From a bacterium HR27 (GTDB lineage Bacteria; Chloroflexota; Chloroflexia; Thermomicrobiales; Thermomicrobiaceae), in assembly GCA_002898975.1 (NCBI GenBank), contig BEID01000138.1, positions 1 to 5,261 on the forward strand: a stretch of 5,261 nucleotides of DNA. The letters are read 5' to 3'. Below, piece by piece: positions 309 through 5,261 of this stretch; position 1 is the stretch's first letter, and each line of letters opens with the position of its first letter. Under the pieces are notes generated by a model. That model saw nothing but the letters and a program-made list of their open reading frames with translations, ran no database searches and was not told the DNA's origin. Both the position numbers and the translations under genes were made by a program.

Positions 309-1007
309 TTATGACGGAACCGTTGTCTCGGAAAGGATCCGTGGGTATCCAAAGAGATAGCCTTGTAAATAGTCCACGCCTACCTCGGCCGCAGCTGCCG
401 CATCCTCGGGCGTTTCGATCCCTTCCGCGATCACCTGTGCGCCGATCGTCCGGCACAGCTCGACGATTTTCGTCACAACTGCCCGTTTGATCGGTTCCGC
501 GCTGAGGCCGTGCGTCAGGTGGCGATCGATCTTGACGAAGTCTGGGCGCAATGCACTGAACCATGCCAAGCTCGAATAGCCGGAACCGACATCGTCGAGC
601 GCGACCCGAAACCCGCGCTCACGATACGCAGCTAGCACGTCATGCACGTGCTTGAGGTTCGGCAGCGACTCGCTCTCGATCACTTCGAACACCACACGGC
701 GAGGATCGATGCCGTATCGTCTGGCTGCGTTCCAGGTCGACTGGAGACATGTCTTGGGATCGTAGACCGCCGTCGGTGTGAAGTTCACGAAAACCAATCC
801 CTCGAGCTTGTGCGTGGCGAACTCTTCGAGAGCTGTGATCCGTGCCTGGACATCCAGTTGGACGAGTTTGTCGAGGACTTTGGCTGCGGAGAGGAGTTGT
901 GCAGCGGTCACGATCGTTCCGTCCGAGCGACGTGCCCGGAGCAGTGCCTCGTGCCCAACGATGTTCCGCTGGACAGCCGAGACGATGGGTTGGAACGCGC
1001 AGGTCAA
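309..1007 (-). CDS. EAL-domain cyclic-di-GMP phosphodiesterase (catalytic part, downstream of an in-frame TGA)
   Basis: This 232-residue frame (TTG start at 1005-1007, TAA at 309-311) is a nearly complete EAL domain, the family that hydrolyses cyclic-di-GMP to linear pGpG. Numbering from the TTG, the catalytic signatures are all present: E20-A21-L22 in 'HEALLR', N75 in 'VNFTP', E108 in 'VFEVIE', D138-D139 in 'ALDDVGSGYSSL', K159 and D161 in 'FVKID', E195 in 'AEGIET', and Q215 in 'LQGYLFG'. The metal and substrate residues therefore look intact. The TTG has no good Shine-Dalgarno. The nine codons between the upstream TGA and this TTG read FTDVLTNGS, which looks like the helix normally preceding the 'FQPIV' strand. 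I infer that this is the C-terminal two-thirds of one longer protein starting at 1394. If translated separately, it would need re-initiation or UGA readthrough. Confidence 0.85.
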   Translation of the reverse strand: MTCAFQPIVSAVQRNIVGHEALLRARRSDGTIVTAAQLLSAAKVLDKLVQLDVQARITALEEFATHKLEGLVFVNFTPTAVYDPKTCLQSTWNAARRYGIDPRRVVFEVIESESLPNLKHVHDVLAAYRERGFRVALDDVGSGYSSLAWFSALRPDFVKIDRHLTHGLSAEPIKRAVVTKIVELCRTIGAQVIAEGIETPEDAAAAAEVGVDYLQGYLFGYPRILSETTVPS

Positions 1008-1034
1008 CGAACCGTTCGTCAGGACGTCGGTGAA

Positions 1035-1037
1035 TCA
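1035..1037 (-). other. In-frame TGA splitting the EAL protein
   Basis: The TGA is codon 120 of a 361-codon frame (1394 down to 312) that is otherwise open before the TAA. Flanking residues are 'TQSA' and 'FTDVL'. Possible explanations are a nonsense mutation (TGG to TGA), a sequencing error, UGA readthrough, or a genuine gene split with TTG re-initiation 28 nt downstream. The position is not a recognisable redox site, so selenocysteine is unlikely. Confidence 0.6.
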
Positions 1038-1394
1038 GGCACTCTGGGTCGCCGCGATGAGCTTGCGCAGGCTCCGGATCGCTGGTATTTCGCGAGGAGT
1101 CGGGCTGGTATCTGTGCCGACGAGCGCGAGAGTGCTATCGAGTTCTTCTTCAGTGAGGTGCTGGCTCGTCAGCCCGAGGAAGCGGTCGAGCGCATCATGT
1201 TCCGGCACCCGCACGCTGAGCCAGGTGCGATCGCTGCCCCACTCGACGTGCAGTGCCAGCTCCTCTGCGACACTGGCGAGCTTGCCAGCAGTGTGGACGA
1301 TCGGCGGCCACAAGAGAACGCGATCACCAGCAAGACCAGCGGCTGGTTCGGTGATCGGCTGCTGGCAGGGGCAGACGTGCTGTGGGTGACCCAT
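1035..1394 (-). CDS. N-terminal part of the EAL-domain protein, ending at an in-frame TGA
   Basis: This 119-residue frame starts at ATG 1392-1394. GGAGGG lies eight bases upstream on the minus strand, which is why I prefer it over extended starts as far back as 1595. It ends at TGA 1035-1037, in the same frame as the EAL domain. The sequence begins MGHPQHVCPCQQPITEP, with a Cys-x-Cys next to a His that might bind metal. It continues into a mixed alpha/beta segment (about residues 25-85) and ends in a helix, 'IRSLRKLIAATQSA'. I do not recognise a named domain. From memory, EAL proteins of Deinococcus-Thermus and related thermophiles have a comparable short Cys-containing N-terminal module running straight into the EAL domain, often with Trp where the TGA stands here. 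A single TGG-to-TGA change would then explain the split. No signal peptide or membrane segment is visible, so it is probably cytosolic. Confidence 0.6.
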   Translation of the reverse strand: MGHPQHVCPCQQPITEPAAGLAGDRVLLWPPIVHTAGKLASVAEELALHVEWGSDRTWLSVRVPEHDALDRFLGLTSQHLTEEELDSTLALVGTDTSPTPREIPAIRSLRKLIAATQSA

Positions 1395-1492
1395 TCGACT
1401 CTCCCTCCGTGGTTGCACCGTGCCGTGCATGTCATCAATCGAATATCGGCTGCGGTGGTTGTGGACATGAGTCGACACGGCCGCGATGACTG

Positions 1493-1504
1493 ACCGTGCA
1501 CGGT
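1493..1504. repeat. 12-bp perfect palindrome in the divergent intergenic region
   Basis: ACCGTGCACGGT reads the same on both strands. A related inverted repeat TGCAC-N6-GTGCA (1414-1429), sharing the ACCGTGC core, lies just upstream of the EAL-frame ribosome binding site. Together they could be operator half-sites for the minus-strand gene. I found no convincing -35/-10 pair for that gene in this 296-bp gap (1395-1690). Confidence 0.25.
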
Positions 1505-1622
1505 GCGATAGCTCGTGCGACCGGTGCAGCGCATCAGCGAGTCGCTGCGACCGCGGGCTCTCATATCGTGGGGAAACCGAAGGTACAGTAGACAACGCGT
1601 GCTCGCAGGGTTCCCGTGTTCG

Positions 1623-1677: not shown

Positions 1678-1690
1678 AAGGGAGGCTTTC

Positions 1691-3193
1691 GTGCAGCGCT
1701 GGGACGATCCCTATGGACCGATCCGGGCACCCGATTTCCCACCTGGACTCGTCTGGTTCAACGTGCAGCGACCGCTCCGGCTCGCTGACCTCGCCGGTCG
1801 GCTCGCGATCCTCGACTTCTGGACCTACTGCTGAATCAACTGCCTGCATGTCGTGCCCGCGTTGCGGGCGGTCGAGGAGCGGTATCCGACTCAGGTGGTG
1901 GTCATCGGGGTGCACTCGCCCAAGTTTCCCAACGAGCGCGAGCCGGCGAACGTGCGCCAGGCTGTCCTCCGGGAAGGGATCACGCATCCGGTCGTGCACG
2001 ATCCGGAGTTGCTGCTGTGGCGCACCTACGCCGTCCGGGCCTGGCCGACGCTGGTCTTCGTCGGGCCGGACGGGCGGATCCTCGGCGTGCATGAGGGGGA
2101 GATTCCTCCGGAAAGCCTTGTCCGCGCTGTCGAGCGGTTTCTCGAGCGCACCGGGGTCACCACGACCGTGGTGCCCGAGTGGCTCGCGCCGGAGCGCCGT
2201 CCCGCTGCTCCGCTGGCGTTCCCCGGAAAACTGGCTGCCGATCCGGCGCAGGACCTCCTCGTCGTCAGCGATACCGGTCACCATCGGCTGGTACTCGCGC
2301 GACCCGACGGGGCGGTGATCGCGGTGATCGGTGACGGGACGCCTGGCCTCCGGGACGGTCGCTTCGCGGAGGCGCGCTTCTGCGAACCGCAAGGGGTCGT
2401 CGTAGCGGGTGATGCCGTCTATGTCGCCGACCGCGGGAATCACGCGATCCGGCGCATCGATTTCCGGCGCGAGACGGTCGAGACGATCGCTGGAACCGGA
2501 CGGCTCGGCCACAGCTACCCGCAGGCAGGGCCGGCACGTCAGCTCGATCTCCGCTCGCCCTGGGCACTCTGGTATCGCGAAGGGCTGCTCTTCGTCGCCA
2601 TGGCCGGGAGCCATCAGATCTGGGTGCTCGACCTCGCCAGCGGTCTCCTGCAACCGTACGCTGGCTCGGGCATGGAGGGTATCCAGGGAGGGCCGCTGGA
2701 GCGGGCCTGGTTCGCCCAGCCCTCCGGGCTGACGAGTGACGGACGCGTGCTGTACGTGGCCTGTCCGGAGGCGAGTGCGGTGCGCACGGTCGACCTACCC
2801 GGTGCGCCGAATCCCAAAGTCGGGCGGCTGGTCGGAACAGGACTCTTCGATTTCGGTGATCGCGACGGGACTGGCGACGAGGTGCGCCTGCAGCATCCGC
2901 TCGATGTCGCCTGGACGGGAAGCGAGTTGCTCGTGGCCGATACCTACAATCACAAGGTCAAGCGGCTCGATCCGATGACACGGGAGTGCCGCGCCTGGCT
3001 GGGTTACGGTCAGCCGGGCCACGAAGACGGGCCGGCCGATCGCGCCCGCTTTTGGGAACCCGGCGGGCTCGCTGTCACCGCCGATACGATCTTTGTGGCT
3101 GATACGAACAACCACGCGGTGCGGGTCGTCGATCGAACGAGTGGGACGGTCTCCACACTCGAATTGTGGGGACTGGCTCCGCCAGCGCCTTGA
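1691..3193 (+). CDS. Thioredoxin-like NHL-repeat protein, probable selenoprotein (UxxC active site, Sec48 encoded by TGA)
   Basis: The 500-residue frame starts at GTG 1691, five bases after AAGGGAGG, and ends at TGA 3191-3193. Residues about 10-150 form a TlpA/thioredoxin-like domain. It has the strand 'LAILDFWTYC', then the active site at 48-51 reading (TGA)-I-N-C, the segment 'VVVIGVHSPKF', and a cis-Pro at W118-P119-T120 before 'LVFVGPDGRI'. Residues about 165-495 form a six-bladed NHL propeller with repeated 'VADxxNHxxRxxD' cores, for example near 245, 415 and 470. This is the architecture of human NHLRC2 and its bacterial relatives, whose active site is C-C-I-N-C. Here the nucleophilic Cys codon is TGA while Cys47 and Cys51 remain. 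I infer selenocysteine insertion, supported by the stem-loop at 1855-1869. The role is probably thiol-disulfide or peroxide chemistry; the substrate is unknown. There is no clear signal peptide. The alternative is a nonsense mutation in a pseudogene, but 452 intact codons follow. An annotation starting near 1853 would lack both a ribosome binding site and the active site. Confidence 0.85.
1832..1834 (+). other. TGA codon probably decoded as selenocysteine (Sec48)
   Basis: It is in frame with GTG 1691 and lies between TGC (Cys47) and ATC-AAC-TGC (Ile49, Asn50, Cys51). It occupies the first position of the thioredoxin-fold CxxC, the classic position for Sec-for-Cys replacement. CsoR, the CapA-like protein and this gene itself terminate at TGA, so UGA is also a normal stop here and decoding would need a local signal. 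Confidence 0.8.
1835..1880 (+). promoter_or_regulatory. Candidate bacterial SECIS element
   Basis: Directly downstream of the TGA, GCCCGC (1855-1860) and GCGGGC (1864-1869) form a perfect 6-bp stem closing a GUU loop (1861-1863). The first loop base, G1861, is preceded by 26 nt after the TGA. The known bacterial consensus places a stem-loop about 16-37 nt after UGA, with a G among the first two loop bases, and a G-U in the loop is bound by SelB in E. coli fdhF. The stem can be extended by U1854-G1870 and further bulged pairs. GC-rich sequence forms hairpins easily, so the structure supports the call but does not prove it. Confidence 0.6.
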
Positions 3194-3207: not shown

Positions 3208-4188
3208 ATGTCCAGCAGTCGCTCCCGTATCGCCTTCATCGGTGACGTCATGCTGGGGCGGCTCGTCAATCGTGTCCTCCAGACAGCGCCCCCAGCCTCT
3301 GTCTGGGGTGACATCCTCCCAGTCCTGATGGGCGCCGATGCGCGCATCGCCAACTTGGAGTGTGTGCTCTCCGATCGGGGCGAGCCGTGGCCCGGGAAGC
3401 GTTTCGTCTTTCGGAGCGACCGCAAGAACGTCGCGGTGCTGGAGGCTGCCCGCATCACGGCTGTCTCGCTCGCCAACAACCACGTGCTCGACTTCGGCGA
3501 TGCTGCCCTGCGTGACATGCTCGAAACGCTCGCTGCGGCCGGGATCGCCTACGCCGGCGCTGGGCGGAATCTCGAGGAGGCACGTCGGCCAGTCACGCTC
3601 GCTGTCGCCGGATTGCACTGTGCGTTCGTCGCTGTCACCGATAACGAGCCGGAGTGGGAAGCTGGCCCGAGTGAGTCCGGTATCTGTTACGCTCCGTGTG
3701 ACCTCGCCGATGCGCGGTTTCGTGCTCTGCTGGAGATCGTGGCCGATGCTGCAGCGACGCATGACCTCGTCATCGTCTCGTACCACTGGGGGCCGAACTG
3801 GGGTGAACGACCGTTACCGGAGCACGTCCGTGCTGGGCGAGCGCTTCTGGACGCTGGCGCGCGGATCGTCTACGGGCACAGCGCCCACGTGACGCGTGGC
3901 ATCGAGTTCTACCAGGGCGGAGCCATTCTCTACAGTTGCGGCGACTTCGTCGATGACTATGCGGTCGACGAAGTGGAGCGCAACGACGAGTCGTTTGTGT
4001 TCATCGCCGTGCTCGACGGCAGGACGCTCGTGGAGTTCGTGCTGGTTCCCACGGTGATCGCCGACTTCCAGGCTCGCCGCTCCGATCCGCTCCGGGCAGC
4101 TCGCCAGTGCGAGCGGATGCGGCGACTCTGCGCCGAACTCGGCACCCGTTCCGCTTTCGTTCCCGAAGGGCTGCGTGTCTTCCCCTGA
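3208..4188 (+). CDS. CapA-family (poly-gamma-glutamate synthesis type) metallophosphatase-like protein
   Basis: The protein has 326 residues from ATG 3208 to TGA 4186-4188. It belongs to the CapA/PGA_cap family, a calcineurin-like phosphoesterase fold. Motifs in order, numbered from this ATG, are 'FIGDVMLG' (G12-D13), 'ANLEC' (N49-L50-E51), 'SLANNHVLDFG' (N90-N91-H92), 'VSYHWGPNWGE' (H193-W194-G195), 'GHSAHVTRGIEFY' (223 onward) and 'YSCGDFVDDY' (C244-G245-D246-F247). The 'CGDF.DDY' ending marks the variant subfamily rather than the classical 'SLGNF' CapA. Its real substrate is not established, although a hydrolase role is likely. No signal peptide or transmembrane anchor is visible, unlike Bacillus CapA. 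The start lies 14 bp after the previous stop and probably shares its transcript. No strong ribosome binding site precedes ATG 3208. Alternative in-frame starts are TTG 3190, which overlaps the preceding TGA as TTGA and suggests translational coupling, and GTG 3166. A non-coding gap of about 140 bp follows (4189-4329), holding the csoR promoter. Confidence 0.85.
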   Translation: MSSSRSRIAFIGDVMLGRLVNRVLQTAPPASVWGDILPVLMGADARIANLECVLSDRGEPWPGKRFVFRSDRKNVAVLEAARITAVSLANNHVLDFGDAALRDMLETLAAAGIAYAGAGRNLEEARRPVTLAVAGLHCAFVAVTDNEPEWEAGPSESGICYAPCDLADARFRALLEIVADAAATHDLVIVSYHWGPNWGERPLPEHVRAGRALLDAGARIVYGHSAHVTRGIEFYQGGAILYSCGDFVDDYAVDEVERNDESFVFIAVLDGRTLVEFVLVPTVIADFQARRSDPLRAARQCERMRRLCAELGTRSAFVPEGLRVFP

Positions 4189-4263: not shown

Positions 4264-4292
4264 TTGCCGGGCGAAGCTCGGTGATGTATGCT
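4264..4292 (+). promoter_or_regulatory. Probable csoR-copA promoter
   Basis: TTGCCG (4264-4269) and TATGCT (4287-4292) are 17 bp apart, each matching consensus in 4 of 6 positions. This places transcription start near 4299, right at the operator. A second possible pair, TTGCCA (4293-4298) and TATATG (4315-4320) with a 16-bp spacer, would put the operator inside the spacer but leave almost no leader before ATG 4330. Either arrangement lets a bound CsoR block RNA polymerase. Confidence 0.45.
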
Positions 4293-4300
4293 TGCCATGC

Positions 4301-4317
4301 ATACCCGGGAGGGGTAT
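4301..4317. promoter_or_regulatory. CsoR operator
   Basis: ATACCC-GGGAG-GGGTAT is a perfect 6-bp inverted repeat with a 5-nt GC-rich spacer. It matches the known CsoR operator pattern (TACCC, short G/C spacer, GGGTA) found in front of csoR and copZA operons. It lies just upstream of the csoR start, so the gene is probably autoregulated: apo-CsoR represses, and Cu(I) binding releases the DNA. Confidence 0.75.
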
Positions 4318-4329
4318 ATGGAGGGCGCG

Positions 4330-4641
4330 ATGGACGAGCGAATGGACGAGGCTGGCTGCGAGCGGCGGGTCGATTCCTATCGGGCCGATAAAGCGCGTAT
4401 CCTCGCGCGCCTGCGCCGGATGGAAGGACAGGTGCGCGGGATCATCCGGATGGTCGAGGAGGACCGTTACTGCGTCGATATCCTGATTCAGCTCTCCTCG
4501 GTCATCGCCGCCGCGCGCAGCGTGGGGCTCGTGCTGCTGGAAGACCACATCCGTGGCTGTGTCCTCAACGCGGAGGACAAGGAAGCGGCCATCCAGGAGC
4601 TGACCGAGGCGATCGAGCGCTTCACGCGGAGCGTTGGGTGA
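4330..4641 (+). CDS. csoR: CsoR-family Cu(I)-sensing repressor
   Basis: The 103-residue all-helical protein is of the CsoR/RcnR (DUF156) family, which represses metal-efflux genes and releases DNA on metal binding. Numbered from ATG 4330, the Cu(I) ligands are C48 ('RYCVDIL'), H73 and C77 ('EDHIRGCVL'). The spacings of 25 and 4 are the same as in M. tuberculosis CsoR C36/H61/C65. The second-shell residues also align: Y47 with Tyr35, and E93 with Glu81. This points to copper rather than nickel or formaldehyde sensing. The typical '[12 protein letters not shown]' signature is in helix 1. I chose ATG 4330 because GGAGG (4320-4324) precedes it by five bases. ATG 4318 and ATG 4288 are in frame, but 4288 would run the gene through its own operator. 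The stop overlaps or abuts the next gene, so the two are one operon. Confidence 0.92.
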
Positions 4642-5261
4642 TCGGACGTATGGCGAAGACGCGGAGCGAGCAGACAGCACAGGAGGAGGCGGTGGAGACA
4701 GGGTCGGTCGTTCGCCTGGCGATCGAGGGAATGACCTGTGCCTCGTGCGTGCGCCGCGTCGAGCGGGCGCTGACCAGGGTGCCGGGTGTCGTGGCGGCGG
4801 AGGTGAACCTGGCGACCGAGGAGGCCCGGGTTAGGCTGGCGCGACCGGACATCGCGGTCGAAGAACTCGCCGCGGCCATCGAGCGGGCAGGCTATCACGC
4901 ACGTCCACTCGGGATCGAGAACACAGGAGCGGAGTCCGAGGGCGCAGCGACGGTCGAGCTCACGATCGAGGGGATGACCTGCGCCTCGTGCGTGCGCCGG
5001 GTGGAACGCGCGTTGAGCCGCGTCCCGGGTGTCGCCGAGGCGAGCGTCAACCTGGCGACCGAGCAGGCGCTGGTGCACTACGACCCTCGGAAGGCGAGTC
5101 TCGATGCGCTCCTGCGTGCCGTGGAGGAGGCAGGGTATCGAGCGCACGTCCTCGTTCGCGATGCGGCCGAGGAGGACGAGACACGAGACGAAGCCGAGCA
5201 GCGCCGGATCGTTGCGTTGCAGCGGCTGCGCCGTGAGGTACTACTGGCCTGGCTCCTCGCC
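4638..5261 (+). CDS. copA: Copper-translocating P1B-type ATPase, N-terminal part (truncated by window end)
   Basis: 208 codons are visible and the frame is open at the window end. GTG 4638 overlaps the csoR stop (GTGA) and has GGAG (4628-4631) six bases upstream, so translational coupling is likely; ATG 4650 is the in-frame alternative with a weaker site. Two heavy-metal-associated (HMA) domains follow. The first has GMTCASC with Cys34 and Cys37, the second the same motif with Cys115 and Cys118. Each is about 65-70 residues of the ferredoxin-like copper-chaperone fold, ending in 'AGYHARPL' or 'AGYRAHVL'. A charged linker (about residues 175-195) leads to '[12 protein letters not shown]', the beginning of the first transmembrane region. 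The P-type core (CPC motif, DKTGT) lies outside the window. From the family and the csoR partner, the product should pump Cu(I) out of the cytosol across the inner membrane. Confidence 0.93.

What the first reader, a model, noticed from the sequence alone, without database searches (positions are those of the whole stretch)
1691..3193. Undescribed-looking selenoprotein: NHLRC2-type thioredoxin/NHL protein with a UxxC active site
A single in-frame TGA (1832-1834) sits precisely at the nucleophilic cysteine of C-C-I-N-C, giving C-U-I-N-C. A strong Shine-Dalgarno and GTG lie 47 codons upstream, encoding sensible thioredoxin-fold sequence ('LAILDFWTYC'), and 452 open codons follow. A random nonsense mutation would be unlikely to land on this exact residue with both sides intact. 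Sec-for-Cys exchange in thioredoxin folds is well known, but I do not recall a Sec form of the NHLRC2-like fusion. A standard gene call would truncate it to about 446 residues without an active site.
Basis: partly seen in the sequence, partly recalled or inferred. Interest (0 to 1): 0.93.

Follow-up and report, generated by a model that had tools for sequence, protein, structure and literature searches.

The report
Selenium form of the NHLRC2/SOQ1 family
A bacterium, likely a heat-loving Thermomicrobium, carries a protein of the same family as human NHLRC2 (a childhood-disease protein) and plant SOQ1 in which a conserved stop codon at the active site is predicted to be read as the rare amino acid selenocysteine, which would make this poorly understood family likely redox enzymes.

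Summary
In the window gene (1691-3193) one in-frame TGA (1832-1834) sits at the nucleophile position of C-[C/U]-I-N-C. It is at the same codon in 27 of 29 loci checked from the order, including all 5 same-genus genomes that have the gene, in 23 of 79 readable named loci and in 14 of 21 further loci of the phylum; the rest have TGC/TGT. A hairpin with a GUU loop, 26 nt after the TGA, fits a bacterial SECIS: the GTTG letters are in 61 of 64 TGA loci and in 2 of 65 Cys loci (those 2 without the stem), and the stem covaries. The own genome has selA (fragment), selB and selD. tRNA-Sec is not in this 63%-complete assembly; the contig breaks about 0.5 kb before its place in a same-genus genome. The predicted fold matches NHLRC2 and SOQ1 over its length. 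In 10 of 14 genomes of the family a copper regulator and copper-type ATPase follow. The nearest database entries read begin after the TGA. A 2026 inventory of 119 prokaryotic selenoprotein families names no NHL or propeller family, though generic UxxC entries could hide members. Selenium insertion and the reaction are inferred, not shown.

The parts
1681..1685 (+). Shine-Dalgarno-like GGAGG, 5 nt before the start codon
   Evidence: sequence
1691..3193 (+). Sec-form NHLRC2/SOQ1-like gene: thioredoxin-like domain (about residues 13-150) plus NHL propeller (about 172-492)
   Evidence: translation with TGA read; Pfam Thioredoxin_8 and NHL; PDB sequence hits SOQ1 and NHLRC2; AlphaFold2 model and Foldseek
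1832..1834 (+). In-frame TGA, predicted selenocysteine 48, nucleophile of the U-I-N-C motif
   Evidence: same codon in relatives
1841..1843 (+). Cys51 (TGC), predicted resolving cysteine, invariant in the 22-row alignment
1856..1868 (+). SECIS-like hairpin core: CCCGC (1856-1860) / GTT loop (1861-1863) / GCGGG (1864-1868)
   Evidence: fold and Sec-versus-Cys comparison, covariation in the non-Thermomicrobium Sec set, repeat on new loci
2042..2050 (+). Trp118-Pro119-Thr120, predicted thioredoxin-fold cis-proline region, invariant in the 22-row alignment
   Evidence: role of the cis-proline from PMC6107167 passages

Best explanation
The gene at 1691-3193 encodes a thioredoxin-like domain followed by an NHL beta-propeller, the NHLRC2/SOQ1 architecture, and its in-frame UGA at codon 48 is predicted to be read as selenocysteine under the direction of a hairpin just downstream, making it likely a selenol-based reductase. 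Predicted steps: SelA and SelD make Sec on tRNA-Sec; SelB binds the hairpin (GUU loop, 26 nt after the UGA) and delivers Sec-tRNA to the ribosome at the UGA; without selenium or SelB the ribosome would stop after 47 codons. In the folded protein Sec48 and Cys51 would form a U-x-x-C redox pair at the start of a thioredoxin helix, facing the cup of the propeller. The propeller likely presents a client; Sec48 would attack an oxidised group on it (a disulfide or a methionine sulfoxide) and Cys51 would resolve the intermediate. The copper regulator and copper-type ATPase that follow it in most of the family suggest, as a lead only, a role in copper stress. The conserved UGA, the hairpin, the machinery genes and the predicted fold are shown by computation; Sec insertion, substrate and direction of reaction are inferred.
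For: TGA at the same codon in 27 of 29 loci of the order, Cys in the other 2; in 23 of 79 readable named loci (an 80th, L196, lacks the N-terminus); and in 14 of 21 loci newly drawn from the phylum. GTTG loop letters in 47 of 50 TGA and 0 of 58 Cys loci; in the later set 14 of 14 TGA, and 2 of 7 Cys but without a stem. Local hairpin energy mean -11.4 (45 unique TGA) versus -1.2 kcal/mol (56 unique Cys), Mann-Whitney p 6e-17, relatedness not corrected. Covariation 0.342 versus shuffled 0.163, 0 of 500 shuffles as high; slid versions at most 0.162. The Leu codon in the loop is TTG in 26 of 27 TGA loci although TTG is 9.7% of Leu codons in these genes; both Cys loci of that set use CTG. Of 2000 synonymous recodings 0.3-2.3% reach the observed energy in the 11 Sec loci tried. 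selA/selB/selD over cut-off in 26/24/24 of 27 TGA genomes versus 16/18/16 of 31 without; 0 of the 8 genomes with none of the four markers carry the TGA form. Fold: pLDDT 94.6; Foldseek TMq 0.93 to SOQ1 7djk and 0.90 to NHLRC2 6gc1. Copper neighbours: CsoR-like gene and HMA-type ATPase start downstream on the same strand in 10 of 14 family genomes.
Against: No selenium was measured. tRNA-Sec is not in the window's own assembly and was not found in 7 of 27 TGA genomes of the order, including G028 and G029 that are 93-96% complete. tRNA-Sec alone does not separate Sec from Cys forms among named genomes: 18 of 23 versus 14 of 27, p 0.08. Three TGA loci lack the GTTG hairpin: L035, L197, and L127 which has another hairpin. 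Two of the further measures do not beat the shuffles: pairs with a change on both sides (445 of 500 as high) and further pair types (174 of 500). One Cys locus, L140, has a hairpin as strong as the Sec ones but without GTTG. For function: PMC6107167 (passages) reports no insulin reduction by human NHLRC2 and a DTT-resistant modification in plants lacking SOQ1. The copper neighbours were found in 0 of 7 loci outside the family.
Confidence: 0.93

Rival explanations
1. The TGA is a nonsense mutation in a dying gene, or a sequencing or assembly error.
For: The window's genome is a fragmented, 63%-complete assembly, and a neighbouring EAL-domain gene really is interrupted by an in-frame TGA not shared by relatives.
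Against: Same TGA codon in 27 of 29 loci of the order from separate assemblies, with both flanks conserved as protein. Only three of the 29 have any other stop inside the matched span, each within about 10 residues of its end.
Confidence: 0.01
2. TGA is reassigned genome-wide, or is suppressed by an ordinary tRNA, so no selenium is involved.
For: One neighbour gene also has an in-frame TGA.
Against: This gene itself ends in TGA in the window and in many relatives; the neighbour's TGA is private; the internal TGA goes with a hairpin absent from Cys forms; the genome holds selA, selB and selD.
Confidence: 0.02
3. The UGA works mainly as a selenium-dependent switch: the main product is the downstream part made by re-initiation after the UGA, and Sec read-through is minor.
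For: Start codons lie just after the TGA; a UGA at codon 48 can in principle sense selenium supply.
Against: The residues before the TGA are conserved as protein and include part of the thioredoxin fold; both Cys orthologues have a full frame. Re-initiation sites were not tested.
Confidence: 0.04
4. It is a selenoprotein, but its job is not reduction of an oxidised client: for example copper or other metal binding at the Sec-Cys pair, or peroxide removal.
For: Human NHLRC2 gave no insulin reduction (PMC6107167 passages). A CsoR-like regulator and a copper-type ATPase follow the gene in 10 of 14 genomes of the family, across four genera; in another family of the order a cluster of 7 loci has a divergent upstream gene that, in the one member checked, is a CtaA-UbiA cytochrome-oxidase assembly protein.
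Against: Closest folds are thiol-disulfide proteins with a cis-Pro next to CxxC (PMC6107167 passages); the copper neighbours are absent in 4 of 14 family genomes and in 0 of 7 loci outside it were they found.
Confidence: 0.33

Closest known systems
NHLRC2 (human; PDB 6gc1, 6g7w)
   Same: Trx-like domain plus six-bladed NHL propeller, C-C-I-N-C motif, cis-Pro; Foldseek TMq 0.90, phmmer E 1.8e-109
   Different: The residue matching the second Cys of CCINC is Sec here; [quoted passage not shown]
SOQ1 lumenal part (Arabidopsis; PDB 7djj, 7djk)
   Same: Same two domains in the same order; E 4.8e-111, TMq 0.93
   Different: SOQ1 is a Cys protein with an HAD phosphatase domain and a membrane helix (PMC6107167 passages)
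Sec-thioredoxins and thioredoxin-like UxxC selenoproteins (Trx, thiol-disulfide isomerase-like, Redoxin family, Trx-like 1)
   Same: UxxC in a thioredoxin fold
   Different: None is described as carrying an NHL propeller in the texts read; some metagenomic fragments under these headings might belong to this family
DipZ Trx domain (Mycobacterium; PDB 2hyx, 5cyy)
   Same: Next best PDB sequence hit after NHLRC2/SOQ1, over residues 13-147 (E 1.6e-19); SCINC motif (PMC6107167 passages)
   Different: Match covers the Trx-like part only; Cys instead of Sec

Membership tests
Bacterial selenoprotein | In-frame UGA aligned with a catalytic Cys of homologues | tested here: met
   27 TGA and 2 Cys of 29; 23 TGA and 56 Cys of 79; 14 TGA and 7 Cys of 21
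Bacterial selenoprotein | SECIS-like hairpin right after the UGA with a G/U-containing apical loop | tested here: met
   exceptions L035, L127, L197
Bacterial selenoprotein | SelA, SelB, SelD in the genome | tested here: met
   G000: selB C153, selA fragment C50, selD C65 (with one in-frame TGA)
Bacterial selenoprotein | tRNA-Sec (UCA) in the genome | tested here: inconclusive
   Not found in the 63%-complete G000; contig ends 517 bp before its place in G001; found with TCA anticodon in G001, G003, G004, G005, G006 of the genus
Bacterial selenoprotein | Selenium in the protein | not testable with these tools
   Needs 75Se labelling or mass spectrometry
NHLRC2/SOQ1 family | Trx-like domain with C-C-(I/V)-N-C | tested here: met
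   C-U-I-N-C; residue 48, I49, N50 and C51 invariant in 22 rows (Cys standing for Sec), Cys47 not. The Sec at the second position is the difference
NHLRC2/SOQ1 family | NHL beta-propeller directly after the Trx-like domain | tested here: met
   Pfam NHL; model strands 178-489; Foldseek over 515-523 alignment columns
NHLRC2/SOQ1 family | C-terminal beta-stranded domain of the animal proteins | tested here: not met
   Protein ends at residue 500, after the propeller. [quoted passage not shown]
Catalogued selenoprotein families (119 in PMC13188914) | A listed family with an NHL or propeller domain | tested here: not met
   Neither term in the main text; Table 1 read in parts 1 and 2 of section 7. 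No NCBIfam model above its cut-off for P0001

The most novel reading that the evidence does not exclude
NHLRC2/SOQ1 is a universal client-specific redox enzyme family whose true catalytic residue is the second Cys of CCINC; Chloroflexota, including SAR202 lineages, run it in an old selenocysteine form, so these bacteria give a direct handle on the unknown reaction behind the human FINCA disease protein and the plant photoprotection protein.
Probability: 0.4. Interest if true: 0.85.

Novelty: new member of a known kind. Interest (0 to 1): 0.66.

Why it matters
It would add a new, widespread selenoprotein family that current annotation cuts off at its active site. Sec mostly replaces Cys at redox-active residues (established knowledge; PMC13188914 section 7), so the exchange at the second Cys of CCINC is natural evidence on an open point: whether NHLRC2 (essential in mammals) and SOQ1 (plant photoprotection) are redox enzymes, and with which residue. 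In 7 of 64 Sec loci the first Cys of the motif is Gly, which points to positions 2 and 5 of the motif as the working pair. The Sec form in SAR202 and other Dehalococcoidia records ties it to lineages common in the dark ocean (abundance is recalled, not tested).

Tried and rejected
Rfam over the window gave one weak match (E 0.18, 19.9 bits against a cut-off of 52) and no SECIS or tRNA; that Rfam has no general bacterial SECIS model is recalled. The Rfam tRNA-Sec model also hits all 14 control genomes at E <= 0.001 (5 over its cut-off), so it is not specific at that level; the best hit in the own genome is a tRNA-Ser by ARAGORN. I therefore counted only matches of at least 58 bits, a line set after seeing a gap (63.7 to 52.1; 58.2 to 53.7).

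Tree: 5 Sec/Cys changes at fewest on 105 rows (4 forced by well-supported branches); the root is not inferred, so gain and loss cannot be told apart (quick method). Methionine-sulfoxide reductase activity of SOQ1 is recalled; the search for it listed 3 papers and the passages on SOQ1 read in one do not state it.

Literature searches behind 'not described': 20 of 22 listed; open-access library only, no supplements. Passages read: PMC13188914 (plus section 7, parts 1-2 of 3), PMC12013277, PMC1088965, PMC2398784, PMC9402790, PMC6107167, PMC5029168, PMC6463390. Other papers were seen as listings only. Not found in the library: the groundwater MAG selenoprotein study cited in PMC13188914.

Full report
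What is there. The frame 1691-3193 is open with one internal stop, TGA 1832-1834, codon 48. GTG 1691 is the first start after an in-frame stop at 1667-1669 and follows GGAGG by 5 nt. Read through, the product of 500 residues has a Thioredoxin_8 domain and NHL repeats. By sequence its best solved relatives are SOQ1 (7djj, E 4.8e-111) and NHLRC2 (6gc1, E 1.8e-109). An AlphaFold2 model made with 22 sequences has mean pLDDT 94.6 and pTM 0.92 and matches SOQ1 7djk (TMq 0.93) and NHLRC2 6gc1 (TMq 0.90) over its length. Cys stands for Sec in all these programs. The genus is inferred to be Thermomicrobium: a same-genus genome has a 775,658-base contig, and a database protein named Thermomicrobium sp. 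CFH 73360 is listed with a longest contig of that same length. The phylum Chloroflexota follows from this and from named relatives.

The TGA is conserved. Of 29 loci checked (the window's own and 28 relatives of the order), 27 have TGA and 2 have TGC at this codon; a further relative, G027, also has TGA there. All five same-genus genomes with the gene have TGA; the sixth is 54% complete and has no match. The named-genome scan kept the best 80 of 571 confirmed stretches, so its proportions are not representative; its patterns do not cover the Sec codon. Of the 80, 79 can be read there: 23 TGA and 56 TGC/TGT. Three of the 23 repeat genomes of the first set (L124, L125, L174). Of the 23, 20 are labelled as Chloroflexota, including Dehalococcoidia and SAR202, and one each NC10, Rokuibacteriota and unclassified bacterium; some of these may be transfers or binning errors. 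In an even draw of 151 genomes of the own phylum, 23 have the gene at E <= 1e-60: 16 with a TGA and 7 without. For the 21 loci new to the session the Sec codon was read: 14 TGA, 7 Cys.

The hairpin. The stem begins at the 19th to 22nd base after the TGA and carries the loop (A)GUU, whose G is the 27th base after it (26 nt between). In the window it is CCCGC-GTT-GCGGG at 1856-1868. GTTG stands at the loop in 47 of 50 TGA loci and 0 of 58 Cys loci (the 50 include the three repeats). On the later loci it is in 14 of 14 TGA loci with a stem, and in 2 of 7 Cys loci without one. Exceptions among TGA loci are L035, L197 and L127; L127 has another hairpin. One Cys locus, L140, has a strong hairpin without GTTG. 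Outside Thermomicrobium, which shifts the register by one base, 39 distinct sequences give a covariation score of 0.342 against 0.163 in shuffles (0 of 500 as high) and 29 cells changed on both sides against 10.2; two other measures (pairs with a change on both sides, further pair types) do not exceed the shuffles. The codon in the loop is the uncommon Leu codon TTG in 26 of 27 loci, against 9.7% TTG in the same genes. Synonymous recoding reaches the observed energy in 0.3-2.3% of 2000 draws for the 11 Sec loci tried; for the two Cys loci tried the figures are 30% and 4%.

The machinery. The own genome (2.07 Mb, 419 contigs, 62.6% complete) has selB, a contig-end fragment of selA, and selD with one in-frame TGA. 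No tRNA-Sec was found in it. The tRNA-Sec region of genome G001 (L054) matches contig C50 up to query base 984, exactly where that contig ends; the tRNA lies at 1501-1593 and the rest of the region has no match, so the gap is likely in the assembly. ARAGORN reads a TCA anticodon in 7 of 7 high-scoring tRNA-Sec loci tried. Across 61 genomes of the order, selA, selB, selD and tRNA-Sec occur in 26, 24, 24 and 20 of 27 TGA genomes, and in 16, 18, 16 and 12 of 31 genomes without a TGA form. Three genomes (G019, G027, G030) were left out because the codon of their TGA had not been read when the count was set up; G027 was then confirmed. Each of the 27 has at least two of the four markers; the 8 genomes with none include no TGA form and one Cys form, G059. 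In named genomes tRNA-Sec is in 18 of 23 TGA and 14 of 27 Cys genomes, so the machinery is compatible with both forms.

Neighbours. In stretches taken downstream of the gene, a CsoR-like gene and the start of an HMA-type ATPase follow on the same strand in 10 of 14 genomes of the family (G000, G001, G003, G005, G006, G007, G009, G010, G012, G014; four genera), and not in the four genomes of one further genus, where only the CapA-like gene follows; they were found in 0 of 7 loci outside the family, with 1.7-8.3 kb searched. Pfam confirms a metal-sensitive repressor and a full E1-E2 ATPase with two HMA domains in G007. In another family of the order, a cluster of 7 loci (6 genomes) has a divergent upstream gene; the one member checked joins COX15-CtaA and UbiA, cytochrome-oxidase assembly enzymes. 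Both point toward copper, as a lead only; the N-terminus shows no obvious signal peptide (by eye), so the protein is likely cytosolic.

How it likely works. By the standard bacterial mechanism (established knowledge) SelB would bind the hairpin and deliver Sec at the UGA. The residue lies at the position of Cys90 of human NHLRC2 (CCINC, residues 89-93); PMC6107167 describes Cys89 and Cys90 as protruding from the surface and the motif as close to the propeller (passages). Residue 48 and C51 are invariant in 22 sequences; C47 is not and is Gly in 7 of 64 TGA loci. I infer a U-x-x-C pair that reduces an oxidised client held in the cleft. The same paper reports no insulin reduction by NHLRC2 and a DTT-resistant modification in plants lacking SOQ1, which argues for a client-specific or non-disulfide substrate such as methionine sulfoxide; the latter rests on a recalled report on SOQ1.

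Why it was missed. The 17 best database hits are 363-452 residues long and cover 72-90% of the query. Of 11 entries read, 9 (eight of those 17, and P0039) begin after the TGA position, and 2 Cys-type entries are full length; that the 9 have a TGA upstream in their own DNA is inferred from their likeness to the loci here. Names given are generic (alkyl hydroperoxide reductase, thioredoxin-like, YncE). The 2026 inventory counts 119 families and subfamilies; neither NHL nor propeller occurs in its main text, and no entry in the table parts read is such a fusion. The Sargasso and GOS papers list thioredoxin-like UxxC families from metagenome reads (passages), in which fragments of this family could be hidden. 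Ten searches of the open-access library found no description.

Verdict. A conserved selenoprotein family that is new as far as these searches reach. It is a new member of a known kind (selenoproteins) and a Sec variant of a known protein family. Sec insertion is inferred with high confidence, the reaction with moderate confidence.

Noticed in passing
window 309-1595, - strand; stop at 1035-1037: An EAL-domain (c-di-GMP phosphodiesterase-like) gene is interrupted by an in-frame TGA; the three closest relatives have a sense codon there, one of them has a different private TGA, and three genus mates show only distant EAL hits, so the gene seems to be decaying. This TGA looks unrelated to selenocysteine.
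   Followed up: yes
G000:C65:933-1865 and relatives: selD itself carries one in-frame TGA in the own genome and in 38 of the 43 genomes with an over-cut-off selD, as expected for the known Sec form of SelD; the codon was not checked.
   Followed up: no
window 3208-4188, + strand: A CapA/PGA_cap-like gene starts 14 bases after the NHL gene's stop and follows it in Thermomicrobium and one sister genus (10 loci; 9 of 14 genomes).
   Followed up: partly
window 4288-4641 and 4638-5261, + strand: CsoR-type copper regulator followed by a protein with two heavy-metal-associated domains, cut by the window end. The pair follows the NHL gene in 10 of 14 genomes of the family.
   Followed up: yes
L174 261-2270, - strand, and the clustered loci L025, L026, L027, L028, L030, L031: Divergent upstream neighbour joining COX15-CtaA and UbiA domains (Pfam checked in L174 only) in another family of the order.
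   Followed up: partly
L197 (2609-2662) and L035 (1621-1674): TGA at the Sec codon but no GTTG hairpin; L197 groups with Cys forms in the tree. Either other SECIS shapes, young Sec forms, or broken genes.
   Followed up: partly
L127 (2612-2665), record labelled candidate division NC10 CSP1-5: TGA at the Sec codon with a different hairpin, placed among Cys forms: possibly an independent Cys-to-Sec change.
   Followed up: partly
genomes G028, G029: 93-96% complete genomes with the TGA form, selA, selB and selD, but no tRNA-Sec found by the Rfam model: possibly a divergent tRNA-Sec.
   Followed up: no
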